A stretch of DNA of 64,000 bases. It comes from Phytophthora colocasiae (lineage: Eukaryota; Oomycota; Peronosporomycetes; Peronosporales; Peronosporaceae). Below the pieces are notes generated by a model. It was not told the origin of the DNA. It did no database searches and saw nothing but the letters and a program-made list of their open reading frames with translations. Positions 15,216 through 44,888 of this stretch are shown one piece after another (positions within the stretch are counted from its first letter, which is position 1; the number at the start of each line of letters is the position of its first letter). Location: NCBI GenBank assembly GCA_018806915.1, contig JAGKQI010000079.1:248001-312000 (forward strand), given 5' to 3'. A program made the translations under genes and the position numbers.

Positions 15216-15699
15216 TGCGTGGTTAACGTGTTAGTTGTGCGGTAGATTAGTAAATGTCGACTGTCTCGGCTCAAAAGAGACGAGTATTTTCAGGTCTACG
15301 CGAGGATAACGGACGCCCTGACTTTACTAGGAACGAGTGGTGCCTGAGGCAAGAGCTCCGGTCGTACTTGATTGCTGCTGCGGTTGTCCAAGATGACAGG
15401 AACTGGCATCGGTAGAGACAGTAAACGATTGATTCTCGCGTGCTGGAGAACGCCGTGTTGAGTCTTAGACATTAGCAGCTCGCGTAAAGTGCCACTACAA
15501 ATCGGGTTGCGGCATTCGCGTTGGCTTAGGCATCAGCTCGTCTTAGTGTGGATATTCCAACCGTGGCACGGACGTCCAGGTGATACCATCGTCTGGCCAC
15601 CTGATGCTTCAGATGCGTCCAAAGCGCCTAAGATCAGTCACGGGCATTCCAGTGGTTCTACTGGTAAATGTTCGACGCCATGCGTGCCTGTAGTGTTAC
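15216..15699. promoter_or_regulatory. Divergent NRT2/NRT2 intergenic promoter region
   Basis: 484 bp between oppositely oriented NRT2 starts, presumably containing both promoters. I see no strong Inr match on either strand and no credible gene; ORFs here extend into the plus-strand gene out of frame. Confidence 0.45.
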
Positions 15700-17421: not shown

Positions 17422-17824
17422 GCAAAAAGTTTCTTGATTTTGTATATAATTAAATGTTATTGTGTTTTGTTCGTGTAGTTTTCAAGAAAATCACTTCCGA
17501 ATGTACTGATTTATGGTGATATCGCACTTCATAATATGAATTATTATTATTAAGTGCGATATCACGAGCGACATATTATGTCGCTCACGGTATTACCTAC
17601 AGATAACGTGGCAGCTGTTCTTAAAGAGGATATCCTGGCCGTGTGTGTCGTACAGGGCAGATAGCACCTTGCAAGTTCGTCACAAGCTGTAGCAAATGGT
17701 TCTCTATGCCCGTACCAAGCTTCATCCGCGCGCGGCAATTTCCTGCAACAGTGAGCGACATAGTAAGTGCGAAAGTAAATGTACTGAATTTATGAAACAC
17801 TAAATGCATGAAACTTCAACTCTC
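17422..17824. other. Convergent NRT2 3' flanks with two adjacent hairpins
   Basis: About 400 bp between the stop codons of two convergent NRT2 genes. It contains two strong inverted repeats side by side: a 14-bp stem GTGATATCGCACTT at 17516-17529 paired with 17552-17565, and GAGCGACATA at 17566-17575 paired with 17577-17586. A similar GTGAGCGACATA motif recurs at about 17752. Near-direct repeats resembling AATGTACTGATTTATG flank the region (about 17500 and 17780), so a small MITE-like insertion is possible. Alternatively these could serve as 3'-end or boundary structures. Confidence 0.5.
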
Positions 17825-19342
17825 TTACGCTGCAACCTTCCCATTGTGGACACTATCGTCGTCCACCTCAGTGGGTGCTAGACCGCCGTGGACTGAGTCA
17901 TCCTTCTCCCATAGCGCCGCATTACCAGGTACTTTGATGCCGAAAGTAGTCAACGCTGCTGCGGCGACGAAAATACTCAAGTACTTGAATGACGTCGCTC
18001 GATTCCCGATGCCCTTGAACATGAGACTCCAGCACAAAGCACCAACGTTACCACCAGCGCCAACGAAGCCTGATGTGGCTCCAGTGAAGGTTGGTAGAAC
18101 ATACGGCACAATACCGTACGTGCTACCGGTACAGGCCTGCACGAAGATGCCGAAGAAGACTAGTAGAGGAATACTAGAGCTCAGGCTCTTCGTTGTACTG
18201 TACAAGTACAGAAAGATAGCTTGGCCTGCGAAAGCCACAAACTGCACTGCAATTCGGCCTTTCATCCCACAGCGTCGGTTGCCGATGTCCGATAGGTATC
18301 CACCGAGAGCACGGGCGAAAATGCACATTAGTCCGAAGAGCGACGAGATGAGCGTGGCGCGGCTTTGAGTGAGACGGCGACACTCGTTGACATCAGTTTT
18401 TGGGTCGCAGTTGGAGTACGTGAAGTCTTCGTAGTAGAATTCAGTGAGGACGTTGTGGACTTGGAGCTCGACGCCAAAGGAGCAGGCGTAGTGGAAAGCC
18501 AGAATCCACGTTACCGGTAGTTTGGCGACGCGTTGAAGACCTTGTTTCATGTCGACTGCAGGCTTTTTCGATGTGAACGTGTCGATTTTACGAAGGTCTT
18601 TGTATTGACCTTGAGGACAGTCGTCGGAATTAAAGTAAAGGGCGACACCCGTGATGACCATGAAGAGCGCAGGGAAAAGGAGAGAAACACGCCAACCCAT
18701 GTTGTCGGACAGAGCTCCACCGCTTGTAACAAGGTTGAAGAGTTGAGGAGTGATCAAGGTAGTAGCTCCAGCACCCAGATTCCCCCACCCAGCAGCAAGA
18801 GCGTTGGCACTACCCACAACCTCCTTGGAGAACATAGTGGACGTCCAGTACGTCGTGGCGATGAAAGAGCAGCCCACGAGACCGATAAAGAACCGAGCGA
18901 ACATGAGACCTGTGTAGCTTGTAACAAGTGAAGCCGAAGCCACAGGGATCGCCCCGACGACCAGTAGAACAGCCTGGACGGTTCTTGACCCGTACCGGTC
19001 ACACATCGGCCCACCGACAGCTCGACCGAGGATGGTGCTCGCTACCGACACAATGTTCGAGTTGGAGACTTGGTCAGCTGTGAGTCCGAGCTGTTTCTTG
19101 ATGGTCGGCATGAGTGGAGGGATGGAGAACCAACCGAAGAAGGCGAAGAAGAAGGACAGCCAGGCGTAGTGAAAGGCTCGCATGTGAGGTCTAGCCACAC
19201 TCAGCAGTTTAATCTCGGTGGCCTTGTCATCTTGCAACGGGTCGGTCTTCAATGGGAAAGTAGTACGACGTTGGTGGACACCAGCGTCGTCTGGATGTAA
19301 CGAAGGCGATACCAATCCGGCGTACTGGTCTTCCGACTGCAT
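17825..19342 (-). CDS. NRT2: High-affinity nitrate transporter NRT2, copy 5
   Basis: NNP-family transporter, intronless, 505 residues from the Met at 19342. The frame is open to 19516, but the start at 19342 aligns with that of paralogue copy 3 and lies just downstream of an Inr-like element (CCTCACTTTCCAATTCGCC on the minus strand, about 19367-19385). Motifs are GRAVGGPMCDRYGSR, AAGWGNLGAG, FARALGGYLSD and GAGGNVGA. Its N-terminal half shares a perfect 673-bp tract (18592-19264) with copy 3, while the C-terminal half is much more different. Unusual replacements occur where others have SLYYYEDF (here TEFYYEDF). It is divergently oriented from nitrate reductase over 679 bp. Confidence 0.95.
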   Translation of the reverse strand: MQSEDQYAGLVSPSLHPDDAGVHQRRTTFPLKTDPLQDDKATEIKLLSVARPHMRAFHYAWLSFFFAFFGWFSIPPLMPTIKKQLGLTADQVSNSNIVSVASTILGRAVGGPMCDRYGSRTVQAVLLVVGAIPVASASLVTSYTGLMFARFFIGLVGCSFIATTYWTSTMFSKEVVGSANALAAGWGNLGAGATTLITPQLFNLVTSGGALSDNMGWRVSLLFPALFMVITGVALYFNSDDCPQGQYKDLRKIDTFTSKKPAVDMKQGLQRVAKLPVTWILAFHYACSFGVELQVHNVLTEFYYEDFTYSNCDPKTDVNECRRLTQSRATLISSLFGLMCIFARALGGYLSDIGNRRCGMKGRIAVQFVAFAGQAIFLYLYSTTKSLSSSIPLLVFFGIFVQACTGSTYGIVPYVLPTFTGATSGFVGAGGNVGALCWSLMFKGIGNRATSFKYLSIFVAAAALTTFGIKVPGNAALWEKDDSVHGGLAPTEVDDDSVHNGKVAA

Positions 19343-20021
19343 TGTTGCTCGTTTGTGGCGCACGTGGCGAATTGGAAAGTGAGGTTCGAAATGAAGCTGG
19401 TATGAGTCATCCGTAAAAGACAACACTGCGGTACAGCAAGCTCTCCTCCGTAACCACAGTTGTGCCGACAAGCACCGCGTCACGAAGGATGGAAAACGTT
19501 GAAACATCACGTGCACTTGATCATGCTGCAGCTTGAGTCATCCTTAATGCGTTAGTCCCAACGCCGGAGACACCCCACTGCACAAACATCATTCAGTCCA
19601 GACGCTTTGAAAACCGACTTACCGGTACAGATGCTTCCGACAGGCGGTGGATTCGTGACTAGCGGCGCGTGAGCAGCGCGGACGGGGACTGATTGGTCTC
19701 TTGCGGATATGACGCGCTTAGGATCCGGAAGACCAGCGCAAACACCAGGAGCGCGACGGAAGTGTTGTCGGTCCCGTCATCCCTCCGCGTTGCAGCCCCT
19801 TGTTCACGCTCGCCCCCATCGCACCGGCACGAAAGCACCGCGCATGAGTCACCCGAAATGTCGATGCACACTCGCGCGCCAATAGAAACGCACTGCAAGC
19901 GGTTGCACACACCTAGTGAAAGTGATGCGGGACGGTGACGTCTCCTAAGCTCCTGCGTTGCTGTGGCGAATGCGCTCCTTTGCGGCGTGCTCATATTTCA
20001 TTTATCTTCGTAGGAGAGATT
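19343..20021. promoter_or_regulatory. Divergent NRT2/nitrate reductase promoter with Inr cores
   Basis: 679 bp between the starts of NRT2 copy 5 (minus) and nitrate reductase (plus). On the plus strand GCTCATATTTCATTTATC at 19989-20006 closely fits the oomycete Inr and sits 16-33 nt before the nitrate reductase ATG. On the minus strand an Inr-like CCTCACTTTCCAATTCGCC lies at about 19367-19385. The arrangement would allow transporter and reductase to respond together to nitrate, which is an inference. Confidence 0.65.
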
Positions 20022-22502
20022 ATGGCGCAGATCGACCCGCGCGACGTTGGAACGCCCGATGAATGGGTGTCGAGGCACCCGGAGTTAATCCGTCTGACGG
20101 GACGACACCCGTTCAACAGTGAGCCCCCACTCAAGTGCACGAGCACCTTTATAACGCCTATGGCGCTGCACTATGTACGCAACCATGGCCCCGTGCCGAG
20201 ACTGGACTGGAACACGCACACATTTTCCATCGACGGATTGGTAGAACGACCCCGCACGTTCGGCATGAACGAGTTGGTCTCCACCTTTGAAAAGGAGACC
20301 GTGACGTTCCCCGTACTACTCGTGTGTGCCGGAAACCGGCGAAAAGAACAGAACATGATCAAGAAGACGATCGGATTCAGTTGGGGCGCGGCTGGATGCT
20401 CCACGGCGGAGTGGACCGGCGTCCCGCTTCACGTGCTGTTGACGGCGTGCGGCGTCGACCGGGAGAAAGCTCAGTGGGTATGGTTCGAAGGCATCGAGGA
20501 CTTGCCACACGACAAATACGGCACTTGTATCCGCGCCAGTACGGCACTAGACCCGGCGTGCGACGTCCTGGTGGCTTGGAAAGCCAACGGAGAGTTACTG
20601 GCGCCGGACCACGGCTTCCCCGTCCGCCTTATTATCCCCGGCCACATCGGCGGCCGCATGGTCAAGTGGCTTGCCCGGATCCACGTGAGCGACCACGAGT
20701 CCACCAACCACCACCACATCATGGACAACCGCGTGTTGCCGTCACACCTTACTGCAGAGACGGCGACAGCGGAGAACTGGTGGGTGAAGTCGCCGTACGC
20801 CATCATGGAGCTCAACATCAACGCGGCGGTGATTGAGCCAAATCATGACGACGTGTTGGCTCTAAGCGAGGACGACACTGTTAATGACATTGAGACGTAC
20901 ACCATCAAAGGTTACGCTTATTCCGGTGGTGGTCGACGGGTTATTCGCGTTGAGGTGACGCTGGATGACGGCGCAACATGGCAGCTCGCTCACATCATTT
21001 ACCACGAGAAGCCCAGCATGTACGGCAAGATGTGGTGCTGGGTGCACTACGAGTTGGCTATTCCAGTTAGCAATCTGCTTCGATCCCGAGAAGTAAGCGT
21101 CCGGGCTTGGGACAGCTCCATGAATCTCATGCCAGAGTTTCCTACGTGGAACGTCATGGGGATGATGAATAACCCCTGGTACCGGGTAAAGATCCACCAC
21201 GAGAAAGACACCAACGCACTTCGGTTTGAGCATCCTACCCAGGCAGGCAACCAAAAGGGAGGGTGGATGACTAAGGAACGGATCATGGTCAGCGAGGAAG
21301 ATGAGCCGATTCGAGGTAAAAATCTTCCAGTTGGAGATTCAGACACCGTCGCAACGCCTAAGTCTGGCTTGAGTGCAGACGAACTGAGTGAACTGCCGTT
21401 GATCTTGATGGACGAAGTGACCAAGCACAACACCAAAGAAAGTTGCTGGTTTGTTTGTCGTAGTCTTGTGTACGACGCCACTCCATTCCTTGACGAACAC
21501 CCCGGTGGTGCTACGAGCATTCTGTTGTGCGGGGGGACGGACTGCACCGACGAATTTGAGAGTATCCACTCTACGAAGGCGTGGCAGATGCTGAAGAAAT
21601 ACTGCATAGGACGTTGCCCAAGCTCACAGGACGGCACTGGGGCAAGTGATACGGCTTCATCTACAGCAGATCATGAAGAATCAGACGTCGCACTCAAAGG
21701 AGCTACGAAGGTTCCTCTTGTGCTCATCTCGAGGCAAGTGGTTAGTCATGACACACGTATCTTCACCTTCGCTCTTCCTGCTAAAGATCTGCGCCTAGGT
21801 CTCCCAGTGGGGAACCACGTCTTCCTGTACGCAAAGATCAACGGCAAGACGGTGGTGCGTGCGTACACGCCCATTTCCTCCGAGAGTGATGAAGACCGCG
21901 GTTTCGTGTCGTTCCTCATCAAAGTCTACTTTGCAGGAGACAACCCCGTGCATCCGGAAGGAGGTCTCTTTTCACAGTACTTGGATGGCTTGCATCTTGG
22001 TCAACAGATCCAGATCAAGGGGCCACTGGGACACTTCACGTACTTCGGACAAGGCAAGTTCTCACTCGAGACCACCAATTGTCACGCTCGAAAGTTCGGC
22101 TTCATCGCTGGAGGGACAGGTATCACGCCCGTCTTCCAGGTCATGCGCGCCATCCTCGAAAACCCAAGAGACCAGACCAAGGTCGCACTAATCTATTGCG
22201 TTCGGTTGGAGCGTGACCTGTTGCTCCGAAAGGAGCTCGAGGCCCTGCAGAAGCTCCGACCGGGTCAATGCCGGATCTTCTACACCCTGTCCGACCTCGA
22301 AGAGTTCGACAAGAACGACCCAGTGGTTCGAGGCTGGGCGTACGGTAAGAGTCGTCTGAATTTCGCCATGGTCAAGAACATCATCGGCTCCGACGCCGAT
22401 CACGTGGCCATGTGTGGACCTGAAGGCATGATCGAGTACGCCTGTAAACCGGCGCTACTCAAACTCAACTACGACCTCAAGACGCAGACCACCGTGTTCT
22501 AA
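20022..22502 (+). CDS. NR: Assimilatory nitrate reductase [NAD(P)H]
   Basis: Cytosolic enzyme reducing nitrate to nitrite, 826 residues from the ATG at 20022. That start is chosen because an Inr lies at 19989-20006; the frame is open to 19935. Domains in order: sulfite-oxidase-type Mo-molybdopterin domain with the VCAGNRRKEQNM block carrying the Mo-ligating Cys (about residue 102); Mo-co dimerisation domain (about 255-400); cytochrome b5-like heme domain with DEHPGGATS (about 490) and a second heme His in the following SIHSTKAW; FAD domain with VRAYTPIS (about 611-618); NAD domain with GGTGITPVFQVM (about 695) and MCGPEGMIEYACKP near the end. Length and order match eukaryotic nitrate reductases. 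It forms the pathway with the NRT2 genes and the nitrite reductase downstream. A Tc1 element sits 71 bp after the stop. A broken copy lies at 49.7-63.1 kb. Confidence 0.97.
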   Translation: MAQIDPRDVGTPDEWVSRHPELIRLTGRHPFNSEPPLKCTSTFITPMALHYVRNHGPVPRLDWNTHTFSIDGLVERPRTFGMNELVSTFEKETVTFPVLLVCAGNRRKEQNMIKKTIGFSWGAAGCSTAEWTGVPLHVLLTACGVDREKAQWVWFEGIEDLPHDKYGTCIRASTALDPACDVLVAWKANGELLAPDHGFPVRLIIPGHIGGRMVKWLARIHVSDHESTNHHHIMDNRVLPSHLTAETATAENWWVKSPYAIMELNINAAVIEPNHDDVLALSEDDTVNDIETYTIKGYAYSGGGRRVIRVEVTLDDGATWQLAHIIYHEKPSMYGKMWCWVHYELAIPVSNLLRSREVSVRAWDSSMNLMPEFPTWNVMGMMNNPWYRVKIHHEKDTNALRFEHPTQAGNQKGGWMTKERIMVSEEDEPIRGKNLPVGDSDTVATPKSGLSADELSELPLILMDEVTKHNTKESCWFVCRSLVYDATPFLDEHPGGATSILLCGGTDCTDEFESIHSTKAWQMLKKYCIGRCPSSQDGTGASDTASSTADHEESDVALKGATKVPLVLISRQVVSHDTRIFTFALPAKDLRLGLPVGNHVFLYAKINGKTVVRAYTPISSESDEDRGFVSFLIKVYFAGDNPVHPEGGLFSQYLDGLHLGQQIQIKGPLGHFTYFGQGKFSLETTNCHARKFGFIAGGTGITPVFQVMRAILENPRDQTKVALIYCVRLERDLLLRKELEALQKLRPGQCRIFYTLSDLEEFDKNDPVVRGWAYGKSRLNFAMVKNIIGSDADHVAMCGPEGMIEYACKPALLKLNYDLKTQTTVF

Positions 22503-22573
22503 GAGATCCTTGTATTCGTTTCCTATCAGTAAAAATATCAAATAAATTAGCGTCAATACAAATCCGTGCAGTA

Positions 22574-24137
22574 CAGTGCTGGCCATAAATATGTAGTGAA
22601 CAGTTATTCGTAGCTAATTGGTTCAATTTTCTACGATTAAGGCTAAAACCGCGTATTTGGGCGTTTCCAACGGAGAGCTTTCCGGGCATATATTTTTTTT
22701 CATTCAGACGATTCGTGGTTGCGGAGAACTGAGAGTGACCATCACTCTGACGCTGGCCAAAAGTACGTAGCGAAGGAATTGGAGCTCAATATTGAGCGTT
22801 CTGTAACGCGTTAGAGCCCACTGCGTGCCATAATTGAATGCTGTGTGTCTTGTGCATCTAACGAAGCTGTTGGTTTGGCTGTAGCAGGTCTACAGAGATG
22901 ACCAAAGGAACGGAATTTACTGAAAATGAGAAAGGCAAAATAATCGGTCTTCGTGTGGGCGGTTGGTCGTTTAATGAGATAGGCAAGCACTTAAATCGAT
23001 CGGAATCGGGGGTGAGCAAGTTTTGGAGGATGAGAGATAACTACGGCAAAGTCAAGAGGTCTGGAAGGCCTCGTAAGGTCTCCAGCAAGTTGCAGCGGAG
23101 GATCGTCCGGGAGGCGAAGAATGCTAAATTGTCGTCTAGCGCCGTGAAAACGGCGCTGAAACTGACGATTTCGGCGCGTTCAGTGCGTCGTGTGCTGCAC
23201 GATTCCCCTCACATGTCCTACGTCAAGCGAAACCGCACTCCGATGCTGAAAATGAGGCACAAGATGGCTCGCCAAAAATGGGCGAGGGAAATGATCAAGG
23301 AGAGGACCGATTGGGATCAAATTATTTTCTCTGACGAGAAAAAAATTAATCTTGACGGTCCGGATGGTCTACAGTACTACTGGCACGATCTTAGATGCGA
23401 GAAGGAGACATACTTCAGCCGCCAACATGGCGGTGGATCCGTCATGATATGGGGTGGTTTTTCGTCTCTTGGAAAAACGGATTTGGCATTTCTGGATGGC
23501 CGCCAAAACTCTGATGACTACCAAGAAACGCTTACCAACTATCTCCTACCCTTTGGCGAGGCCTACCATGAAGGTCTCTACGTTTTTCAACATGATAACG
23601 CAAACATTCATGCGTCAAAGAGCACCCAGGCCTTCCTAAATAGCTCACAAATCAGTGTTCGACTGGCCAGCGCTATCTCCAGACTTGAATCCAATTGAAA
23701 ACGTCTGGGGTATACTTGCACGATGTGTCTATCGGGGTGGAAAGCAATACACAAGCGTCCACGAGCTCAAGTCGGCCATTCAAGCTGCTTGGGAGAATGT
23801 GGGCCTTTCGCAGCTTCAATCTTTAGTGAACTCGATGCCAGATCGCATTAGCGATGTCATCGAAGGTAAAGGAGGCAAGACAAAGCATTAGTAAGTTAGA
23901 AACGAAAGAAAAATGCTCAATATCGAGCTCCAATTCCTTCGCTACGTACTTTTGGCCAGCGTCAGAGTGATGGTCACTCTCAGTTCTCCGCAACCACGAA
24001 TCGTCTGAATGAAAAAAATATATGCCCGGAAAGCTCTCCGTTGGAAACGCCCAAATACGCGGTTTAAACCTTAATCGTAGAAAATTGATCCAATTAGCTA
24101 CAAATAACTGTTCACTACATATTTATGGCCAGCACTG
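22574..24137 (+). mobile_element. Tc1/mariner transposon with 224-bp inverted ends
   Basis: 1564-bp element flanked by TA dinucleotides at 22572-22573 and 24138-24139. Ends begin CAGTGCTGGCCATAAATATG and form long terminal inverted repeats, 22574-22797 and 23915-24137, with only a few differences (for example TTGAG against TCGAG near the inner end and GGCTAAAACC against GGTTTAAACC). One transposase gene lies between. It inserted 71 bp downstream of the nitrate reductase stop codon, within the expected 3' UTR, and upstream of the nitrite reductase promoter. Confidence 0.93.
22898..23891 (+). pseudogene. Tc1-type DD34E transposase with one frameshift
   Basis: Cut-and-paste transposase. N-terminal paired-like helix-turn-helix DNA-binding region (KGKIIGLRVGGWSFNEIGK, then KRSGRPRKVS, a GRPR-like AT-hook linker) and a DDE domain: FSDEKKINLDGPDG (first Asp), FQHDNANIH (second Asp) and SPDLNPIENVWG (catalytic Glu). 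The frame breaks at about 23657, where loss of one base shifts the reading from NSSQISV into an off-frame end, while the FDWPALSPDLNPIENVW part continues in another frame to 23891. Apart from this single indel the gene looks complete at about 330 codons, so inactivation is recent or a base-call error is possible. Confidence 0.88.
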
Positions 24138-24523
24138 TAGCATCTTACCTACCAAAAATGGCGTTTGCATAGGTCAAGTAACAGGTAACAGCACCAAGCA
24201 CCCACCTTACCTGTTCCTGTCTCAAGCATCACACCACCACCATCCTGTGCAACACGAATTTTGGATGACTCAAAGTCACAAGCGTAAGCGCCCATCCGTT
24301 TTCTGCATGGATTGCGCTGGACCAGACTTCAAGCCCGCAATTGGACAAATGGTGCGCGTCACACCGTGAACAGTCTGAAGTTCGGGGACCTGCGCGCCTA
24401 CGTCACGCGTTTCGCTCTGCCTCTGGTTAACGGACACCATCGGAGCTCCAGCTTTATGGATCATTTTTCAATCTGCGGAGTGTGGGGCAATCCGTCCTTT
24501 TCCGGTGCATCGTGGAACTCAAC
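24138..24523 (+). promoter_or_regulatory. Nitrite reductase promoter and 5' leader, stranded from its gene
   Basis: About 385 bp between the Tc1 element and the nitrite reductase ATG. TCATTTTTCAATCT at 24461-24474 is a strong oomycete Inr match, 50-63 nt upstream of the ATG at 24524. No separate coding region is supported. Because a retrotransposon starts at 24544, transcription from this promoter now runs into the 5' LTR. Confidence 0.65.
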
Positions 24524-24543
24524 ATGGCCAACAAGGAGGTGGT
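24524..24543 (+). pseudogene. NIR: Nitrite reductase first exon stub (first 20 coding nucleotides)
   Basis: The ATG at 24524 starts the residues MANKEVV, cut by the 5' LTR after 20 nt. The last five bases, GTGGT (24539-24543), are repeated at 30891-30895 as the target-site duplication. Removing the element and one GTGGT copy joins this stub in frame to the body of nitrite reductase, giving a VVVVVGNGMVG dinucleotide-binding start. This identifies the true start codon of the interrupted gene. Confidence 0.93.
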
Positions 24544-25048
24544 TGTGACGGAATGCTGTCGATAGCACTCCGTCGGCATTGAAGTGCAAGTTGATGCACT
24601 GTAGTGCAATCTACATATCTCTACATGTACCCACTTTGTGATTGGCTAAAACTAGATTCTGGTATTATGCCATTGTGGTTTACGCCATTCAGCTGAGACA
24701 TTGAGAGAGTCTCATTGGCTGAAATTCGAGAAGGTTCTCGAAGCTTGATTATGGGACGCCCAGGAGTCAAGTCAACATTGCTACGTGGAAGTTTATAGGA
24801 AAATCATTGGTAGATAGCCAAATCAGAAGATAGGAAAAGATAGGCTCTAGGATACATTCTACTGGATTTTTGAGAGAGCTCTGTGAGCCACCAGTTAGCT
24901 TAGGACCGTAAGAGCCTTCCTCATTTCAATTCACTTTTCAATTTACCAACAACCTCTCAGTGGCCCATCAACTGGTCACGCCTCCTGGGTCTTCGCTCCG
25001 CCGTCCAAGTCCGGCCTCCCGCTTCCTCCTTGCGCTTACTGTGTTACA
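24544..25048 (+). repeat. 5' LTR of chromovirus
   Basis: 505-bp long terminal repeat, TG...CA ends, matching 30381-30890. Followed at once by the TGG of the primer-binding site. Confidence 0.93.
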
Positions 25049-25483
25049 TGGCCAGCGCTTGTCGGGTCAAGCTTCGCTCCTCCATCGTCCAAGGTCAGAT
25101 TCCTCGTGGGCGGCATAGCCAGAAGCGAGTAGATCCTTGGCTATTAGCACCAGCCAATTGCTGGGAAGTGCTAGGCCTAAAGGGTCTCTTTTGGGTTGTC
25201 TTTGGGAGAGTTCGTGCCCATCACAGGTCAGGGAATCAACTTTGAAAGGTTGGTATATCTCTGCCTAGTGCACGTAACTCTTTGGTCGCTACTAGAAGCC
25301 GGTTCAGTGCTTGGAACGCTCTTAAGTGCAGCTTTTATTTCCATCGCTCCCCGGTAGCTTCCAATTTACCCTTTCTTTTGGTGTTTGGGTCGGTACAAGC
25401 CGAACCACTCCCATTTTCTCCTTCTTTCATTGGGTTTTTGGGTTTTATTGGATTGAGTTCGTGCTACGAAAAGTCCACTCGAA

Positions 25484-26555
25484 ATGTCATCTACACGTGG
25501 TAGATCGAGTGAGCGCGACTCTCCAAACCCGCGTCCGCGTAGAACGCCTCGAACGACTGCCAGGACGGCTCCTGATTCACTCCAGGGCCAACCGCAGGCA
25601 ACAGCCAGGACGGCACCTGATTCACACCAGGGCCAACCGCAGGCAACCGCTAGGACGGCTCCTATTCCACAGAGCCAACCGCAAGCAACCGCTAGGACGG
25701 CTCCTATTCCACAGAGCCAACCGCAAGCAACCGCTAGGACGGCTCCTATTCCACAGAGCCAACCGCAAGCAACGGCTAGGACGGCTCCTGATCCACAGGG
25801 CCAACCGCAACCAACGGCTAGGACGACTCCTGATCCACAGGGTCAACCGCAAGCTACGAATATGTCGTCGGGACAAGCAGGCGCAGCATCCAGACACGAT
25901 GTCGATGCAACGGCTGTTAGTTTACTTAACGCAGCAGCAACAGTCATACCAAGCCCAGATGCAAACCCAGTTGCAAGCACAGATGCAGCAGGCCAACGCA
26001 AGATTCGAATATCTAGTTGCGTCCAGGGGTGAGCAAAGAAAGAAGGATCCGCCTATGTATGAAGGCAAATACGGCGAAGATATTGAGTTATGGATCTTCG
26101 CCACCGAGCAGTATTACGCAAGCAGACGCGAGTTGATGGAGGCAGATACATCGGATTTTGTGACGATGATCTCCATCAGCAACAGAGCAAGTCAGTGCTG
26201 AATTGGTATCGCGCGTTTATCGCAGAGTGTGGTACAGAACGTACAGCCCACATGGTCGCTCTTCAAGGGAAGACTTCGCACTCGTTTCAGGCCGAAGGAC
26301 TTCGAATATGATCTTCGCGAGAGGATGTTTCGTCTCAAACAGAATGAGACCATCCATGATTACGTCTCCAAGTTTCAAGACTTGCTATCACAGACAGAGT
26401 TGTCTATCAGCGAGTTGGAGAAGCGTTTCTTCTTTCAGAACGGTTTGCGAGAGGAGACAGCGAGGAAGATCAAGGAAGAGAGTCCTTCAACACTGCAAGA
26501 TGCCATTGAGATTGCGTCGAATTTTGAGTTTGCACTACTCAGAGAAAACCCCTAG
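25484..26555 (+). pseudogene. Chromovirus gag, frameshifted, with minisatellite
   Basis: Starts at the ATG at 25484 with a Ser/Arg/Pro-rich region. Seven or so tandem copies of a unit near QATARTAPIPQSQP (mostly 42 bp, about 25554-25860) follow. The frame then shifts; a coiled Gln-rich stretch (TQQQQSYQAQMQTQLQAQM) and a gag capsid-like region (YEGKYGEDIELWIFATEQYY) lie in another frame. From 26229 a third frame gives WSLFKGRLRTRF and the Retrotrans_gag-type ENETIHDYVSKF-like segment. A zinc-knuckle CRNCGKFGHIS follows at about 26688 but its last Cys falls in a different frame. No single gag protein can be made. Confidence 0.75.
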
Positions 26556-29500
26556 AGCTCCTGCGAAGGGTTCGCAAGGATCATCAAGCTCAGGGCATTG
26601 TGCGTCTAAGTCGAAGCAGAATTCAAAGAGCTCCGACAAGAAGAAAGGCAAGAGCGATGATTGGAAAAAAGACAGCTACGTGCAGAAACTGTGGCAAGTT
26701 TGGCCACATTTCTCAGATTGTACTCAGCCAAAACGTACTGAAGCAAATCGGTACATGCAGGGCGCAGTGTATGCGATCCTAGAGGCTGAAGCTCGAGCAT
26801 TCAAGACGGATGACCAAGAGGCCCGTCTCGATATTCATCGACAACGGCAGTAGCCTGAATGGCGTTACTGAGGAGTTGGTGAAGAAGCTTGAGTTGGTTG
26901 TCACGGAAGGTGACATGATGCAAGTTTATCTGGGTTATGATCATTTTTTGCATCGTCCACGTCGGAGTGTTTAGTTGTCTCTGCAGTTACCAGGGTTTCA
27001 GCGACAGCAGGAACATTCCAAGTCATGCCTGTTCCTGAAGGAAGGATGTTGTTTTGGGCATGATGTGGCTGCGGGGGCAGAACCCTGATATCGACTGGAA
27101 TACTGGACAGATTGCACCTCGCATCAAGGTGGAGAACACGCAGACTGTGAAGTTGAGACTGCCGAAGACTCGTCCAGCCCGTTGGGTGGCAGGACAACGC
27201 CGCGCCAGAGTTGCGCGCAGGCCCGTGAGATTTTCAATTACTATCGGCAGCATGGCCACAACGGCCAGTTTGGGCGAACGAAGATTATTTCGTCCAAACA
27301 GTTTCCAGCAGATGTTGCGTAGGGACAAGGATATTGAGGCAGTGTTTGTCATCAATCCGCATGATTCGGAGAAGGCTGAACGCTTCAGAGTCAAGGATGG
27401 GACGCTCTCAAGGATAATCCGGCGTATGAGACGCTACTGAAGTATGCGGATACGGTTTCCGTACGGAACTTCCGAATGAGACACCGCCAGTACGGGAAGG
27501 AATTGAGCACGAGATTTTGCTCAAACCCGGTACTCAACCGATTTCGGTCAAACAATGGCGCCAAAGTCCTGATCAGAGAAAAACGATTCAGGAATGGACC
27601 AAAGAGATGGTTCAGGCTGGCATCATTCGACCGAGTACGTCAGCATTTTGTGCACCGACTTTCTGTGTGAAGAAACCAGTCGGATGGCGTATTGTGCACG
27701 ATTATCGTCTATTGAACTTGGCGACGATTTTACCAGCTATTCCTATGCCTCACCAAGAGATACCTTTGATGCGATGGCCGGTAGCTATTGGTATTCGTGC
27801 ATGGACTTACTTTGGGGTTATTACCAAGTGAAGTTACGAGAAGCAGATATACCTTTCACTGCTTTCTCAACCCCAGATGGTCTATTTGAATATCTCGTCA
27901 CACCCATGGGGCTCAGTGGTAGCCCAGGAACCTTTAATCGACTGCTGCAAAGGTTTTCATGGATTTGAGTGATGTGGCGAAGATTTACTTCGATGATATC
28001 TACGTATACACGAAGGGTGAAAGATGTGAACGACCACATCGCAGCACTGGACAGGGTATTGAAGCGATGTGAAGAGCAGAAGCTCTACATCAAACACTGT
28101 CCAAATGCCAATTTTGCGTGGATGAGATTCCATGCTTAGGCGACTTTGTCCGGACGCAAGAACGTTCGTATGGACCCAGATAAGGTGAAGATTATCGCCA
28201 GTGGCCAGTCCCCAAGACCAAGAAGCAAATGGAAACTTCCTGGGGACAACGGTTTACGTTTCGAGATTTTGCAAGGATTTCGCGCAGTTTGCAGGTCCTT
28301 TGCATGAATGTATCAAGGAAAACGTTCTCGTGATGCTATCGAACTCGATGAGAACCAATTACACTGTTTTGACGAGCTTAGAAGCGCTTGTCATCACCTC
28401 CGGTTCTCAGTCTTCCTGATTTCTCCAAACCTTTCGGAATTCGGATGGACGCCTCAAATTTCGCAATTGGGGGGTCTTATTTCAAAAGGAGGGAGGTTGG
28501 AACATCCAATAGCCTATACGGGCAGAAAGATGAAGCCAGCAGAACTGAATTATCCAGTTCGCGAACAGGAACTACTCGCTATTATGCATGCGTTGAAGAC
28601 ATGGCGCGTGTATCTTCTCGACAAGCCATTCCTGGTGGAAACAGATCACAGAGCATTGAGATGATTCTCACGCAGAAGACGACGAATCGACGCATTGCGC
28701 GGTGGTTCAACGAACTTGCGGAGTTTCAGCCTCTGTTCAAGTGGATTCAGGAGAGACGAATGTAGTCGCAGATGCGATGTCGAGAAATCCTGAGTTCGAG
28801 CATAAGGCAGCGCAAGTGAGCCTGAAGGAACTTCTTGATACGGCTCAAAACCGTGAAATTGTGGCTACCATGGTCGAGAACAATATGACCGTGGCACAAT
28901 CCGCAGTGAAGATGTACTCGTGGAAAAAGGACTTGCAGGACTTGTCAGAAGCTACAGCAGAGACAAAGGTTCCGCATTACTCGCTAGATCATGGCGTGCT
29001 GTATTATCAGACGCGTGAAGATGAGAGTCCTAGATTGTACATTCCCGATGACGAAGATCTGAAGAATCGAGTCATTTGTAGAACCACGATGCAGTAACGG
29101 CAGGCCACCCAGGGTATTACAAGACCTATGTCGCAGTACGTGAGAAGTACTATTGGCCGAAGATGATGAAGTATATTCAGCGCTATGTGAACACTTGTGA
29201 AATGTGTCAGCGCAACAAAGCGAGGCAGGTGAAGCCTCCCGGATTACTTCAACCGCTGGAGATACCACGAGGTAGATGGGTCGACATTTCAATGGATTTC
29301 ATTGTGTCTCTACCTCCCAGCAAGGATGGTTTGAATGCCATCATGGTCATTGTGGATCGATTGACCAAGCGTGCAAAGTTTATTGCTACGCAGACGACGA
29401 ACAGCGCAGAGGATATTGCGAATGTTTTCATGAAGAGTTATGTAAGAGATCATGGCCTTCCGAAGACGATTGTGTCTGATCGTGACTCAAACTGTACGTC

Positions 29501-30330
29501 TAAGTTTTGGCTGGCTGTTATCCCTGCTATTGGACAGCAGCATAACCTGTCATCGGCATTTAGGCCGCAGACGGATGGACAAACGGAACGTACAAACCGT
29601 TTTATCGGAGATTATCTTCGAGGTGTTATCAACCCAGCCCAGAATGATTGGGATGAGTTTCTTCATTTGGCAGAGTTCGCCTATAATCGGCGATTGCATG
29701 CTACGATTGGCATGTCACCATTTGAAGCGGATCTAGGATATATTCCATATATGCCCGACGATATCGCGGCAGATCCGGAGTTTAAGAAGTTGGAGAAAGC
29801 AGCAAAAGAGTTTCTACTCCGACAGGAAGCCTTCCTCAAGGTCGCGCAAGACCGTATGAGTGAAGCACAGGAGCGCATGAAGCATTATTACGACAGGAAC
29901 AGACTTGTCCAAGACTTCAAAATTGGCGACATGGTGCTACTAGATTCGAAGAATTTGGATATCCGTCATAAGGGGTACGCACAGTCGAAGAAGTTAGCTC
30001 CGAGGTTCATTGGACCATTCCCGGTCCAGAAGAAGGTATCTCGAGACTCGTATGAGTTGGGATTATCGAAGAACCTGAAGTTGCATCAATTTTCCATACA
30101 TCACTGTTGAAGCCGTACCGCAAGGACCCGAAGCGCAGGCAAAAGGTGAACAAGGTTGTGTTAGCCGATGGAACTGAAGGGCAACTGGTCAGAAGCCGTG
30201 ATTAACCACCCGTAAGTACAAGGGAAGCCGCAGTACAAGGTTTGGTGGTTAGGCGAGACCAAGAAGAGAGGCCACATGGGAACCTGTTGAGAATCTGAAA
30301 CAGATCCCTGGTCTCATCGACCTCTATTGA
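26556..30330 (+). pseudogene. Chromovirus pol (protease, RT, RNase H, integrase, chromodomain), broken
   Basis: Pieces of a Ty3/gypsy polyprotein in changing frames. The protease region reads FIDNGSSLNGV at about 26833, with Asn where the Asp-Ser/Thr-Gly triad is expected. RT pieces include VGWRIVHDYRLLN (about 27688), DGLFEYLVTPMGLSGSPGTF (about 27873) and IYFDDIYVYTKG (about 27984) as the YxDD box. RNase H pieces lie near 28440-28680 (EQELLAIMHALKTWRVYL). The longest intact part is the integrase (29163-30110): CEMCQRNKARQ zinc region, WVDISMDFIVSLP (first Asp), IVSDRDSNC (second Asp) and FRPQTDGQTERTNR (Glu). A chromodomain-like end, YKVWWLGE then ATWEPVENL in another frame, lies at 30232-30310, placing the element among chromoviruses. 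Confidence 0.88.
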
Positions 30331-30380
30331 AGTCAGAGAGAGAATCCTTTCTAGGGAGGCTCTTTCTCGAAGGGAGGTCA

Positions 30381-30890
30381 TGTGACGGAATGCTGTCGAT
30401 AGCACTCCGTCGGCATTGAAGTGCTGATTGATGCACTGTAGTGCAATCTACATATCTCTACATGTACCCACTTTGTGATTGGCTAAAACTAGATTCTGGT
30501 ATTATGCCATTGTGGTTTACGCCATTCAGCTGAGACATTGAGAGAGTCTCATTGGCTGAAATTCGAGAAGGTTCTCGAAGCTTGATTATGGGACGCCCAG
30601 GAGTCAAGTCAACATTGCTACGTGGAAGTTTATAGGAAAATCATTGGTAGATAGCCAAATCAGAAGATAGGAAAAGATAGGCTCTAGGATACATTCTACT
30701 GGATTTTTGAGAGAGCTCTGTGAGCCACCAGTTAGCTTAGGACCGTAAGAGCCTTCCTCATTTCAATTCACTTTTCAATTTACCAACAACCTCTCAGTGG
30801 CCCATCAACTGGTCACGCCTCCCTGGGTCTTCGCTCCGCCGTCCAAGTCCGGCCTCCGCTTCCTCGCCCCCGCGCGCTTACTGTGTTACA
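30381..30890 (+). repeat. 3' LTR of chromovirus
   Basis: 510-bp copy of the LTR at 24544-25048. Its TTACA end is followed by the GTGGT target duplication and the nitrite reductase coding sequence, so any transcript of that gene would now have to start in or near this LTR. Confidence 0.93.
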
Positions 30891-33800
30891 GTGGTCGTGG
30901 TCGTCGGCAATGGAATGGTGGGGCACCGCTTCCTGGAGCGACTCCGCAAGTACGACACTGACAAGCACTACACACTCGTTTCCATCGGGGAAGAACCCAT
31001 TCAGCACTACAACCGTATGTTGCTTACTGAGTACTTCGAGCATCTGAGTATCGACAAGCTCAAGTTGGCACCACCCAATTGGTACGAGGAAAACGAGATC
31101 AACCTCATGACCAACGCTCAAGCACTAGCACTCGACACGACCAACAAGACGTTACTCTGTCAGCGACTCAACGTCGACATCCCGAAAGGAGAAATGCAGT
31201 TCGAAGTACCGTATGATCGCATCGTTATCGCCACGGGTGCCAGTGCTTTGGTGCCTCGACTTCCTGGTACCAAGTTGCGCGGGGTGTTCGTCTACCGCTC
31301 GATCGCCGATCTAAACAACATCATCGAACATGGTGAGAAACAGGCCAAGATTGAGGCTGCAGGGGGTGCCAAGAAGTATGCACTGGTGGTTGGTGGTGGT
31401 CTTCTCGGTCTTGAAGCTGCCAAAGCCGTTCATGACCTGAATGTCTCCGTTCGAATAATCAACCGCGGTACTCAATTGATGTCCCGCCAACTCGATGCCG
31501 ATGGTGCCAAGGTACTCCACAACGAAATCGTTAACAAGTTTGGGATCGACGTACTGTACGAGAAGTCGACTGAAGAGATCATCGGCAGCGAAGAGAATGG
31601 TGTCGAGGCCGTGCAGTTCACCAATGGTGAGCGGGTTAACGACATCTGTATGATCATCTTCGCCACTGGAATCAAACCACGCGACGAGCTCGCCCACTCC
31701 AGCGGTCTGGAACTTGCCAAGCGCGGAGGAATTCTCATCAACGACTTCTTAGAGTGCAGCGCACCGGGAGTGTACGCACTAGGCGAGTGCATTTCGCACC
31801 GAGATCTCACGTACGGCCTTGTGGCGCCTGGATACGAGATGGCCGACACCTTGGCCAAGAATTTCACGTGTGGATCTCTAGAAAACCGGATCCCGTTCCC
31901 TGGTGGCGACATTTCGACCAAGCTCAAGCTCATGGGGATGGAGGTCGGCTCGTTCGGCGACTACTTCCCGGAGTTCATCAAGGAACCATTCGAGACGCTG
32001 ACGTACAACAATCCACTGGAGAAAGTGTACAAGAAGCTCTTCTTCTCATCTGACGGGAAGAAACTCCTTGGTGGGATCCTGGTTGGTGACACGAGTGACT
32101 TCGTACGACTTTCACTCATGTACAAGCAAAAGGACACCAAACCTCTGGTAGATCCACCGAACGAGATCCTTCTTGGAAAGCGTGGCAGTAGTGGTGGAAA
32201 CACAGTGCTGGACCTGCCGGACGAGGCTCAAGTGTGTTCGTGCAACAATGTGAGCAAAGGGGATATCTGCAAAGCCATCAAGGAGAAGAAGCTGACGAAG
32301 CTTGGAGACGTCAAGAAGGTCTGCAACGTTGGCACAGGTTGTGGCGGCTGCATCCCCATGGTCAAAGACATCTTGGAAGCTGAACTGGCTGCTGCAGGCA
32401 CCGAAGTGGATAAATCTCTGTGCGATCACTTCGCTTACTCTCGTCAAGAACTCTACCAGATCATTCAAGTGGAACAGTACGCTACCTTCGCCGAGGTTCT
32501 GGCCAAACATGGTCGCAAACAGCACGATCCTCGCAATTATGGGTGTGAGATCTGCAAGCCCACGATCGCTTCCATCTTGGCTAGTCTTCAAAATGGTCAT
32601 ATCCTCAAAGGAGACCGTGCTGCGCTTCAAGACTCGAACGACCGGTTCTTGGCCAACCTGCAGAAGTCAGGCCAATTCTCTGTTGTTCCTCGCGTAGCTG
32701 GCGGTGAGATAACACCTGACAAACTCATTGTCCTTGGCCAGGTCGCGAAGAAATTCGATCTGTACACGAAAATTACGGGCGGGCAACGCGTTGACTTATT
32801 TGGAGCCCAGAAGCAAGACTTACCCGAGATCTGGAGAATGCTGGTAGAAGCTGGTTTCGAGTCGGGTCATGCCTATGGGAAGTCTTTGCGTACTGTGAAA
32901 AGCTGCGTTGGCACAACGTGGTGCCGCTACGGCCAACAGGATTCCGTGGGCTTCGCCATTTTCCTTGAGAACCGCTATCGTGGTATCCGATCGCCTCACA
33001 AACTAAAAGGCGGCGTCTCTGGTTGCACTCGTGAGTGTGCCGAGGCTCGCAGTAAGGATTTCGGATGCATTGCCACTGACCAGGGATACAACGTCTACGT
33101 GGGTGGGAACGGAGGCACGAACCCCCGCCATGCCACGCTCCTAGCCTCGGACGTCCCGCAGGATTTAGCCGTCAAATATTTGGATCGATACATCATGTAC
33201 TACATCATGACAGCCGACCGTCTCCAGCGCACGTCCAAGTGGCTCGATGCACTTGAAGGCGGAATTGAACAGCTTCGCCGTGTCGTGATGAAAGACTCGC
33301 TTGGTATTTGTGACACGTTGGAGAAGCAAATGAGCTACCTTGTCGGCACGTACGAGTGCGAGTGGAAGAAGGTGATCGAGTCGCCCGACCTGATGGCACA
33401 GTTCGCTCAGTTTAAGAACACGAACGAGAACCAGAAAGAAGTCCACATGCGTACCGTGAGAGACCAGCGTATGCCAGCTTTCATCGCACACGCCAAGACG
33501 CGAAGCAACAGCGGAACTGGCACCGAGTCTTCGTCTCCAACGTCAACGACATCCATTCTATCCGATCTCGACGACACGGACTGGGTCTCCTTCGGCAAAA
33601 AAGAGCTCTTTGACGTGAATGGAGGAGGTGCTGTGCTGTACGGCGAGTCTCAACTAGCGATCTTCAACATCGTCGAGTCCTGTAACGGTATCGAGAAGGT
33701 GTCTTGGTACGCCACTCAGAACATGTGTCCATTTGATCACTCGTTTGTGCTGGCCCAAGGCATCGTGGGCGATCTAGATGGCCGACCGAAAGTAGCTTGC

Positions 33801-34028
33801 CCCATGCACAAGCGCAACTACGACCTCTCCGATGGCAGATGCCTCAGCGGTGATGACTTGCGCCTTCAGACCTTCGATGCCAAAGAGGAAGACGGCGTCA
33901 TTTACGTACTGCTACCACCGACGGATGTGGTGGACGCGCGCTTAGCAACCTCAAAGTACGTTGCGAAGAATGACGATGTTCCTGTAGCAAAGGCGGAGGT
34001 GTCTGCACCTGTCACACTTGACTGGTAG
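30891..34028 (+). CDS. NIR: Assimilatory nitrite reductase [NAD(P)H], body severed from its start
   Basis: Six-electron reduction of nitrite to ammonium. 1045 codons are open, beginning within the VVVVGNGMVG FAD-binding loop; the native ATG lies 6.4 kb upstream at 24524, beyond a retrotransposon. Domains: FAD/NAD oxidoreductase (second nucleotide loop LVVGGGLLGLEAAK, about 165-178); BFD-like [2Fe-2S] domain with CSC and CGGC (Cys 449, 451, 484, 487); nitrite/sulfite reductase ferredoxin-like half-domain; siroheme/[4Fe-4S] cysteines SCVGTTWC and SGCTRECAEARSKD (Cys 672, 678, 712, 716), the latter matching the family signature; C-terminal Rieske domain with CPFDHS and CPMHKRNYDLSDG. No other break is seen, so the insertion looks recent relative to gene decay. 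The first in-frame ATG inside this part (30914) would miss the FAD loop start. A partial inverted copy lies at 36066-36945. Confidence 0.96.
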   Translation: MVVVVGNGMVGHRFLERLRKYDTDKHYTLVSIGEEPIQHYNRMLLTEYFEHLSIDKLKLAPPNWYEENEINLMTNAQALALDTTNKTLLCQRLNVDIPKGEMQFEVPYDRIVIATGASALVPRLPGTKLRGVFVYRSIADLNNIIEHGEKQAKIEAAGGAKKYALVVGGGLLGLEAAKAVHDLNVSVRIINRGTQLMSRQLDADGAKVLHNEIVNKFGIDVLYEKSTEEIIGSEENGVEAVQFTNGERVNDICMIIFATGIKPRDELAHSSGLELAKRGGILINDFLECSAPGVYALGECISHRDLTYGLVAPGYEMADTLAKNFTCGSLENRIPFPGGDISTKLKLMGMEVGSFGDYFPEFIKEPFETLTYNNPLEKVYKKLFFSSDGKKLLGGILVGDTSDFVRLSLMYKQKDTKPLVDPPNEILLGKRGSSGGNTVLDLPDEAQVCSCNNVSKGDICKAIKEKKLTKLGDVKKVCNVGTGCGGCIPMVKDILEAELAAAGTEVDKSLCDHFAYSRQELYQIIQVEQYATFAEVLAKHGRKQHDPRNYGCEICKPTIASILASLQNGHILKGDRAALQDSNDRFLANLQKSGQFSVVPRVAGGEITPDKLIVLGQVAKKFDLYTKITGGQRVDLFGAQKQDLPEIWRMLVEAGFESGHAYGKSLRTVKSCVGTTWCRYGQQDSVGFAIFLENRYRGIRSPHKLKGGVSGCTRECAEARSKDFGCIATDQGYNVYVGGNGGTNPRHATLLASDVPQDLAVKYLDRYIMYYIMTADRLQRTSKWLDALEGGIEQLRRVVMKDSLGICDTLEKQMSYLVGTYECEWKKVIESPDLMAQFAQFKNTNENQKEVHMRTVRDQRMPAFIAHAKTRSNSGTGTESSSPTSTTSILSDLDDTDWVSFGKKELFDVNGGGAVLYGESQLAIFNIVESCNGIEKVSWYATQNMCPFDHSFVLAQGIVGDLDGRPKVACPMHKRNYDLSDGRCLSGDDLRLQTFDAKEEDGVIYVLLPPTDVVDARLATSKYVAKNDDVPVAKAEVSAPVTLDW

Positions 34029-36065: not shown

Positions 36066-36945
36066 CTCACCGTCTTCCTCTTTGGCATCGAAGGTCTGAA
36101 GACGCAAGTCATCACCGCTGAGACAGCTGCCATCGGAGAGGTCGTAGCTGCGCTTGTGCATGGGGCAAGCTACTTTCGGTCGGCCATCTAGGTCGCCCAC
36201 GATGCCTTGGGCCAGCACAAACGAGTGATCAAATGGACACATGTTCTGAGTGGCGTACCAAGACACCTTCTCGATACCGTTACAGGACTCGACGATGTTG
36301 AAGATCGCTAGTTGAGACTCGCCGTACAGCACAGCACCTCCTCCATTCACGTCAAAGAGCTCTTTTTTGCCGAAGGAGACCCAGTCCGTGTCGTCGAGAT
36401 CGGATAGAATGGATGTCGTTGACGTTGGAGACGAAGACTCGGTGCCAGTTCCGCTGTTGCTTCGCGTTTTGTCGTGTGCGATGAAAGCTGGCATACGCTG
36501 GTCTCTCACGGTACGCATGTGGACTTCTTTCTGGTTCTCGTTCGTGTTCTTAAACTGAGCGAACTGTGCCATCAGGTCGGGCGACTCGATCACCTTCTTC
36601 CACTCGCACTCGTACGTGCCGACAAGGTAGCTCATTTGCTTCTCCAACGTGCCACAAATGCCAAGCGAATCTTCGGAAGTCCTGCAACCAAAGACCTTAC
36701 TGCGAGCCTCAGCACACTCATGAGTGCAGCCAGAGACGCCGCCTTTGAGTTTGTGAGACGATCGGATGCCACGACAGCGATTCTCAAGGAAAATGGCGAA
36801 GCCCACGGAATCCTGTTGGCCGTAGCGGTACCAGGTCGTGCCAACGTAGCTTTCATGTGGACACAGCATGCACGTCGACACGAATGTGTGCACGCTTTGC
36901 CGTGACTCAAAATGAGCTTCCATCAACATTCTCCAGATCTCTGCG
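36066..36945 (-). pseudogene. Nitrite reductase 3'-half fragment, inverted copy
   Basis: On the minus strand, sequence matching the nitrite reductase siroheme and Rieske regions. It begins in the EIWRMLVEAGFES region (here EIWRMLMEAHFES), keeps VGTTWYRYGQQDSVGF and SGCTHECAEARSK, then lacks about 90 codons between the FGC after the siroheme signature and the DSLGICDTLEKQ segment. It continues nearly identically through the Rieske motifs CPFDHS and CPMHKRSY and diverges after AKEEDGE. One cluster-ligand Cys (TTWC) has become Tyr and the region between ESR and VGTTW is altered, so it is non-functional. The long stretch of near identity with the parent points to a fairly recent duplication or later conversion. 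Confidence 0.9.
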
Positions 36946-43081: not shown

Positions 43082-43183
43082 TGTTTTACAATCTTTTTCG
43101 TTATCTTACGGTACACTTTGTCGCGAGCTTCATTGTAATTCACCCGTCGACTACTTTTGTCACCGGTTGCAAGTTGCTTCACT

Positions 43184-43914
43184 TGCCCTTTGACTTCTTC
43201 TCGGCATCCGACTTGTGCTCCTTCTTCGTTGACGTGGCGTCCTCCTTCTCAGTCGACTTGGAGCTGGCAACGTCCTCTGTAGCCTTCACCTCGTCACCAG
43301 AGGCAACTTCCGAAGGGGCTGACTCGTAACCGAAGTCGCCGTCGTAAGGGTAGCCGTAGCTGTAGTCGTTGCCATAGCCCGGGTAGATCGGGTGGACGAG
43401 TAGTAGTCCGGGTAGTAGCCGTAGCCGTTCCCGAAGTTACGGGTAGCTTGGGTAGGCGTAGCTGTAGGACGAGTAGTAGTCCGGGTAGTAGTTCCCGAAG
43501 TTACCACCATAGTAGCCACCGTACGACGAGTAATAATCGGGGTAGTAGTAGCCGCCCTTCTTGCCATAGCTGTAGTAGTCCTTGTTGTGGCCGTAGTCGC
43601 CCCAGGCTCCGCCGTAACTCTTGTAGCCATAACTGTAGCCGCCACCATAGTTCTTGTCGTCATAGTTGTCGTCATAGTCGTAACCATGGCCCTTGTGCTC
43701 ATTGCTATAGACGTCGTGTTTGTAGTCGTCTTTGCCGTAGCTGTAGTCGGACGACTCCGTGGCCTTGTCCTTGTCTTCGAGACGGCGACGGTAGTTCGGG
43801 TGGTCGTGGTCGTGGTCGTGTCTCCTCTTGTGGTCGTGATCGTGCTTCTGGTGGTGGTGGTGCCCGTAGTCGTGGTAGGAGCCGAGTTGACGGGCGTCAG
43901 TCGGTTGGAGGGCG
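43184..43914 (-). pseudogene. Inverted, 5'-truncated copy of the Tyr/Gly/His-rich secreted protein
   Basis: Minus-strand copy of the gene at 43994-44791, starting at the LQPTDARQL codons. It has no in-frame ATG or signal peptide, because the sequence upstream (43915 onward) is unique and meets a stop in this frame. It shares with the other copy the in-frame TAA created by a 51-bp inserted repeat. It is probably not expressed as a secreted protein. Confidence 0.8.
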
Positions 43915-43993
43915 AATGGTGTTCTAGGGAGCTCTCACTTCGCATTTTGCGTTCTCCTCAACACTCAACTAAACCAAGCGACCCCATCGCACG

Positions 43994-44791: not shown

Positions 44792-44888
44792 AGCAACTTG
44801 CAACCGGTGACAAAAGTAGTCGACGGGTGAATTACAATGAAGCTCGCGACAAAGTGAAACGTAAGATAACGAAAAAGATTGTAAAACA

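What the first reader, a model, noticed from the sequence alone, without database searches (positions are those of the whole stretch)
24524..30910. A chromovirus has inserted into the seventh codon of nitrite reductase
The first 20 coding bases and the Inr promoter lie left of the element and the other 1040 or so codons lie right of it. The 5-bp duplication GTGGT (24539-24543 and 30891-30895) proves insertion, and removal restores the frame exactly. The rest of the gene has no stop, so loss is recent, the allele is heterozygous, or it is expressed from the 3' LTR. If it is homozygous, nitrate would be taken up and reduced but nitrite could accumulate. Obligate biotrophic oomycetes have lost this pathway, so this could be an early step of the same loss.
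Basis: partly seen in the sequence, partly recalled or inferred. Interest (0 to 1): 0.87.

Follow-up and report, generated by a model that had tools for sequence, protein, structure and literature searches.

The report
Jumping gene interrupts nitrite reductase
In the genome assembly of a plant-infecting water mould close to Phytophthora capsici, the only copy found of the gene that turns nitrite into ammonium is cut in its seventh codon by a retrotransposon, while the genes that take up and reduce nitrate look whole; whether living strains really lack the enzyme still needs to be checked.

Summary
Confirmed. A 6,347-bp Ty3/Gypsy-type LTR retroelement (24544-30890; LTRs 505 and 510 bp) sits in codon 7 of the NADH nitrite reductase gene (NiR), flanked by the 5-bp repeat GTGGT. 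The organism is a Phytophthora near P. capsici and P. oleae (NiR 96% identical to both). In the 92.5-Mb assembly no second NiR and no uninterrupted copy was found, so the assembled haplotype reads nitrate transporters present, nitrate reductase present, nitrite reductase broken: the gene state reported for the downy mildews Plasmopara viticola and P. halstedii.
The native start now leads to a 13-residue peptide. The 3' LTR holds a perfect oomycete INR+FPR core promoter, but its first AUG is out of frame and the next drops two of the three glycines of the FAD motif, so rescue is unlikely.
'Recent' is not settled: the element's LTR pair is the most diverged of 18 pairs compared and its body is rich in copy-specific changes, yet the 1,037-codon NiR remainder has no stop or frameshift. 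A poor consensus of the insert, decay before insertion, or selection on NiR are all possible. Zygosity cannot be told. An ordinary kind of mutation in an interesting gene.

The parts
24461..24477 (+). INR-like stretch of the native NiR core promoter, 63 bases before the start codon
   Evidence: it has more than one mismatch to the INR+FPR pattern (not listed)
24524..24543 (+). first 20 coding bases of NiR, ending in the left copy of GTGGT
24539..24543 (+). left target-site duplication GTGGT
24544..25048 (+). 5' LTR, 505 bp, with INR+FPR promoter motif at 24931-24947
25049..25068 (+). place of the primer binding site; its letters differ from those of the other family copies read
25326..26552 (+). 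gag region with 42-bp tandem repeats (within 25556-25899) and an in-frame stop at 26199-26201; capsid match 26202-26552
   Evidence: Ty3_capsid 5.5e-11, Retrotrans_gag 2.1e-10, both over the cut-off
26528..28762 (+). zinc knuckle and protease pieces (both below the cut-off), reverse transcriptase and RNase H pieces (over the cut-off), spread over two reading frames
29082..30107 (+). integrase (H2C2 over, core domain below the cut-off) with Tf2-1-like SH3 domain
30216..30327 (+). probable chromodomain remnant split between two frames
   Evidence: PF00385 E 0.0013 for 30253-30327, below the cut-off; no match for 30216-30287
30369..30380 (+). polypurine tract next to the 3' LTR
30381..30890 (+). 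3' LTR, 510 bp, with INR+FPR promoter motif at 30768-30784
30891..30895 (+). right target-site duplication GTGGT
30891..34028 (+). rest of the NADH nitrite reductase gene (pyridine nucleotide-disulphide oxidoreductase, BFD, NIR_SIR, Rieske domains), frame open
20022..22502 (+). nitrate reductase, 826 aa, molybdopterin, dimerisation, cytochrome b5, FAD and NAD domains
17825..19507 (-). nitrate transporter divergent from nitrate reductase
22574..24137 (+). Tc1/mariner-like element between NR and NiR, inverted ends of about 229 bp (96.9% identical), TA at both flanks
   Evidence: query: 22573-24138
36070..36853 (-). inverted partial duplicate of the NiR 3' part (98.3% over 604 bp, 90.6% over 171 bp)

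Best explanation
An LTR retroelement of a large family in this genome inserted, by ordinary integrase-made 5-bp staggered joining, into codon 7 of the only nitrite reductase gene found in the assembly of a Phytophthora close to P. capsici. Shown: the insertion, the duplication, the single locus in the assembly, the intact look of nitrate reductase and of five nitrate transporter frames nearby. Inferred: on this haplotype no working nitrite reductase is made, because the native message ends after 13 codons and a message from the 3' LTR lacks an AUG that keeps the FAD-binding glycines; cells in which it is homozygous would take up and reduce nitrate but could not turn nitrite into ammonium. Not known: whether the allele is homozygous, fixed or old.
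For: LTRs, duplication, frame; matching 5-bp repeats in 8 of 8 other LTR pairs whose flanks were compared; one NiR locus, apart from its partial duplicate, and one locus for the upstream flank; the only other NIR_SIR match (2 matches from 3 candidates) has a flavodoxin domain, as sulfite reductases do; NR and NRT frames; AUGs and lost glycines.
Against: The NiR remainder has no stop or frameshift and no excess of amino-acid change against P. capsici, which would also fit a gene still in use. On the clock of this element's own LTR differences an unselected frame would have stayed open with probability about 0.001; if all copy-specific body changes came after insertion, 3e-5; on the family-average LTR clock 0.10. 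No reads, transcripts or other isolates were available.
Confidence: 0.78

Rival explanations
1. The insertion is heterozygous or present in only part of the nuclei; the uninterrupted allele was merged away in the assembly and supplies the enzyme. (This overlaps with the best explanation, which leaves zygosity open.)
For: The assembly shows one full copy of NR and of NiR, as a collapsed diploid would. The insert carries many copy-specific changes in bursts while NiR reads without a break, as would happen if few reads covered the insert.
Against: No second NiR and no second upstream flank in the assembly; that the assembly is collapsed is assumed, not shown. Some other family copies also carry many unique changes, up to 23 columns.
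Confidence: 0.4
2. NiR is still made from this allele: transcription starts at the INR+FPR motif of the 3' LTR, or the element is removed by splicing, so the insertion changed the promoter and not the enzyme.
For: Perfect INR+FPR at 30768-30784; 4 matches in the window, two of them the LTRs, where shuffles give 0.08 on average; the frame is open from 30741 in the LTR through NiR; an AG at 30796-30797 whose phase fits GT sites at 24539, 24542 and 24545; NiR unbroken although the element is damaged.
Against: No in-frame AUG between 30741 and 30915; the first AUG after the motif (30910) is out of frame; a start at 30915 loses G6 and G8, invariant in the 15 aligned sequences. An intron of about 6.26 kb would be very long, and the 5' LTR holds the same AG nearer.
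Confidence: 0.1
3. The insert is an assembly artefact that does not exist in the genome.
For: Copy-specific changes more numerous than in 33 other copies over one 1.3-kb piece.
Against: Exact 5-bp duplication at both ends and family-typical LTR ends are not what a chance misjoin makes.
Confidence: 0.04

Closest known systems
Ty3/Gypsy LTR retrotransposons, chromovirus branch
   Same: Direct LTRs with TG...CA ends, 5-bp target duplication, polypurine tract, Ty3-type capsid, RT and RNase H before integrase, Tf2-1-like SH3 domain, probable chromodomain remnant
   Different: This copy is broken in gag and pol; its primer-site letters differ from those of its relatives
Nitrate assimilation cluster NRT-NR-NiR of Phytophthora infestans (PMC5176271, passages read)
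   Same: NRT divergent from NR (514 nt apart here, 479 nt there), NR and NiR in the same direction
   Different: NR-NiR spacer 2,021 nt here, 403 nt there; 1,564 nt of it are a mariner-like element; NiR interrupted; five full NRT frames on this contig
Plasmopara viticola and P. halstedii (PMC5394536, passages read)
   Same: nitrate reductase and nitrate transporter kept, nitrite reductase missing
   Different: there the gene is reported absent and sulfite reductase is absent too; here NiR is interrupted and a sulfite reductase-like gene is present
Transposon insertions in the nitrate reductase gene niaD of fungi (recalled, from no call)
   Same: mobile element in a nitrate assimilation gene
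   Different: those were selected with chlorate in the laboratory and hit nitrate reductase

Membership tests
Ty3/Gypsy LTR retrotransposon | Direct LTRs with TG...CA ends and a short target-site duplication | tested here: met
   505 and 510 bp, GTGGT twice
Ty3/Gypsy LTR retrotransposon | RT and RNase H before integrase | tested here: met
   RVT_1 in 27573-27965, RT_RNaseH in 28308-28762, integrase in 29082-30107 (core domain itself below the cut-off)
Ty3/Gypsy LTR retrotransposon | Primer binding site complementary to a tRNA 3' end | tested here: inconclusive
   the letters of this copy differ from the 14 other 5' LTR copies read; no tRNA was compared
Chromovirus branch | Chromodomain at the integrase C terminus | tested here: inconclusive
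   PF00385 E 0.0013, 19.1 bits against a cut-off of 25.1, on one of two pieces tried
NAD(P)H nitrite reductase of oomycetes and fungi | Pyr_redox, BFD, NIR_SIR and Rieske domains in one chain | tested here: met
   all over the cut-off; P. oleae and P. capsici relatives 96% identical
Functional nitrite reductase | Complete N-terminal FAD-binding GxGxxG behind a start codon | tested here: not met
   the first in-frame ATG of the right part, 30915, lies inside the motif

The most novel reading that the evidence does not exclude
The LTR has taken over as the promoter of nitrite reductase: selection kept the NiR frame open while the element beside it decayed, and the enzyme is made from an LTR-started message by a non-AUG start or by splicing native exon 1 to an acceptor in the 3' LTR. 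The insertion would then rewire the coregulated nitrate cluster rather than destroy it.
Probability: 0.08. Interest if true: 0.75.

Novelty: new member of a known kind. Interest (0 to 1): 0.5.

Why it matters
If the allele is homozygous, a Phytophthora, a genus not made of obligate biotrophs, would show the gene state of Plasmopara (nitrate uptake and reduction kept, nitrite reduction lost). That would make the order of pathway loss testable close to living relatives with the full pathway: nitrite reductase first. It would also be a puzzle, because P. infestans strains silenced for the whole cluster were nonpathogenic on leaves (PMC5176271) and nitrite should be toxic. If it is heterozygous or polymorphic, it is a natural test of how much the pathway matters. 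As a type of mutation it is ordinary.

Tried and rejected
A second NiR in the assembly: none found. The inverted partial duplicate as a spare enzyme: rejected, it lacks about the first 640 residues and about 74 codons in its middle. Decay of NiR by relative rates: no excess against P. capsici with five outgroups (15/13, 14/16, 18/14, 12/13, 14/13); against P. oleae 20/12, 17/14, 21/9, 18/11, 18/12, of which one (P. ramorum as outgroup, chi-square 4.8) passes 3.84 uncorrected; P. capsici also exceeds P. oleae (21/16, 21/15, 21/13, 19/11, 20/15), so P. oleae looks slow; nitrate reductase, window against P. capsici, gives 16/12, 18/12, 17/11; changes at sites invariant in the other seven NiRs: window 8, P. 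capsici 7, P. oleae 5. Template switching with the 89% subfamily as source of the element's odd changes: rejected, 1 of 35 columns fits it. Copies of the partial duplicate in other Phytophthora: among the 120 hits listed of 629, the only one named Phytophthora is a 203-aa P. fragariae fragment at 68%, and a Nothophytophthora one stands at 73%; full-length NiRs are outside that search's length limits. Natural NiR knock-outs by transposons in print: nothing to the point in the lists (titles and starts of abstracts); this does not show that none is in print. Nitrate genes in the P. halstedii genome paper: no passages. The species was not identified.
Full report
What is there. The window is C33:248001-312000 of a 92.5-Mb, 105-contig assembly. 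Its nitrite reductase is 96% identical to those of Phytophthora oleae and P. capsici and 88-90% to full-length ones of five other Phytophthora species, so the source is a Phytophthora near the first two; the species was not identified. NiR begins with ATG at 24524; after 20 coding bases comes an LTR retroelement (24544-30890), and the gene goes on at 30891 to a stop ending at 34028. The 5-bp repeat GTGGT stands on both sides. From 30891 on the frame aligns with homologues over its whole length, and the joined start resembles theirs.

The element. Its LTRs are 505 and 510 bp, 499 of 511 columns identical. A Ty3-type capsid, reverse transcriptase, RNase H, integrase zinc finger and a Tf2-1-like SH3 domain score over their cut-offs; zinc knuckle, protease, integrase core and chromodomain pieces score below. 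The pieces lie in more than one frame, with an in-frame stop in gag. So chromovirus is likely but not proven. The family is large: 118 first-look candidates for the LTR, 40 scored, all at 98% or more; of the piece 29082-30380, 40 of 66 candidates were scored: this copy, 33 at 96-98% and 6 at 89%. In 8 of 8 other LTR pairs whose flanks I compared the 5-bp repeats match. Copies with pol frames above 1,500 aa exist: 4 among those at 93% identity or more in a list of 121 matches (118 of 3,699 candidates scored).

The gene and its neighbours. Nitrate reductase (20022-22502, 826 aa) carries its domains. Five full NarK-type nitrate transporter frames lie on this contig and one full and further partial matches on C57; all score below the NCBIfam cut-off, as matches to a model built for bacteria and archaea may. 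The order NRT-NR-NiR and the 514-nt NRT-NR spacer resemble P. infestans (479 nt; PMC5176271, passages). The NR-NiR spacer is 2,021 nt against 403 there; 1,564 nt of it are a mariner-like element with TA flanks. NiR has one full locus in the assembly, besides an inverted partial duplicate 2 kb downstream; two further matches are weak, at 25-30% identity. The 404 bases before the insertion occur once. The only other NIR_SIR match has a flavodoxin domain, as in sulfite reductase.

How it acts. A native message would read 13 codons and stop at 24563-24565 inside the 5' LTR (read). The 3' LTR has a perfect match to the INR+FPR core promoter (30768-30784); the window holds 4 such matches, two of them in the LTRs, where shuffles give 0.08 on average. 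The pattern letters were recalled; the motif and its link to high transcript levels are described in PMC3599244 (abstract and passages). A message from there meets its first AUG at 30910, out of frame, and the next at 30915, in frame. Starting at 30915 loses the first strand and two glycines of the FAD motif that are invariant in the 15 aligned sequences, a bacterial one included. The frame is open from 30741 in the LTR into NiR but has no AUG before 30915. So the likeliest outcome is no working enzyme from this allele.

Age. The LTR pair differs by 5 substitutions and 3 gaps, the most of 18 pairs compared; 7 of the 17 others are identical and none has more than 1 substitution, though up to 3 gaps. 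The pairs came from the copies most like this LTR, so older ones are under-sampled. In the piece 29082-30380 this copy has 27 unique columns in 12 groups, the most of 34 copies (next 23), with 5 transitions to 11 transversions against 67 to 26 in the other 33 pooled (Fisher p 0.003). In the 1.5-kb piece after the 5' LTR it is third of 15, with 13 transitions to 4 transversions, so that bias does not hold there. Its own mariner-like neighbour is unremarkable, 7 unique columns where four other copies have 0, 2, 12 and 10. Only 1 of 35 copy-specific columns fits the 89% subfamily. Yet NiR has no break. If the LTR differences are real and later than the insertion, an unselected NiR frame would have stayed open with probability about 0.001; if all body changes are later, 3e-5; on the family-average clock 0.10 (indels counted as two-thirds frame-breaking, all rough). 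Three readings remain: a poor consensus of the insert; a copy already decayed when it came, which does not explain the LTR differences; or NiR kept by selection. The middle of the element (26549-29081) was not compared.

Selection on NiR. Window-lineage changes match those of P. capsici (for example 15 against 13) and nitrate reductase behaves alike; against P. oleae the window has more, beyond the 5% line with one of five outgroups, but so has P. capsici in count. There is no clear sign of decay.

What it compares with. P. viticola and P. halstedii keep nitrate reductase and nitrate transporter and lack nitrite reductase (PMC5394536, passages); Sclerospora graminicola lacks all three (PMC5700566, passage). 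The window haplotype has the Plasmopara state by interruption. In P. [quoted passage not shown] that is silencing of three genes, not of NiR alone. Whether the present allele is homozygous, common or tolerated is open, so the claim of an early step of pathway loss is not established.

Noticed in passing
49764-50094, 50103-63066, 63070-63119: A degraded second copy of nitrate reductase (pieces 80% and 86% identical) is itself split by a 13-kb LTR element with 757-bp LTRs (99.87% identical) and the 4-bp repeat ATTT; its 1,848-aa pol frame is open. Further NR pieces (77% and 92%) lie beyond the window at C33:314871-315581.
   Followed up: partly
36070-36853 (-): Inverted partial copy of NiR, tail to tail with the gene, 98.3% identical over 604 bp but 90.6% over 171 bp; it shares residues of the window NiR that P. 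capsici and P. oleae lack. A read-through message could form a long hairpin.
   Followed up: partly
22574-24137: Mariner-like element in the NR-NiR spacer; four further full-length copies in the genome at 99% and two at 96%.
   Followed up: yes
190-5024 and 13776-19507: Five full nitrate transporter frames and a fragment beside nitrate reductase; in P. infestans one such gene is described in the cluster.
   Followed up: partly
25049-25068: Primer-site letters of this copy differ from those of all 14 other 5' LTR copies read.
   Followed up: partly
43082-44888: Near-perfect inverted repeat, 842 alignment columns at 98.5%, arms about 130 bases apart.
   Followed up: no
58811-60832: MULE transposase frame lying inside the 13-kb LTR element.
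   Followed up: no
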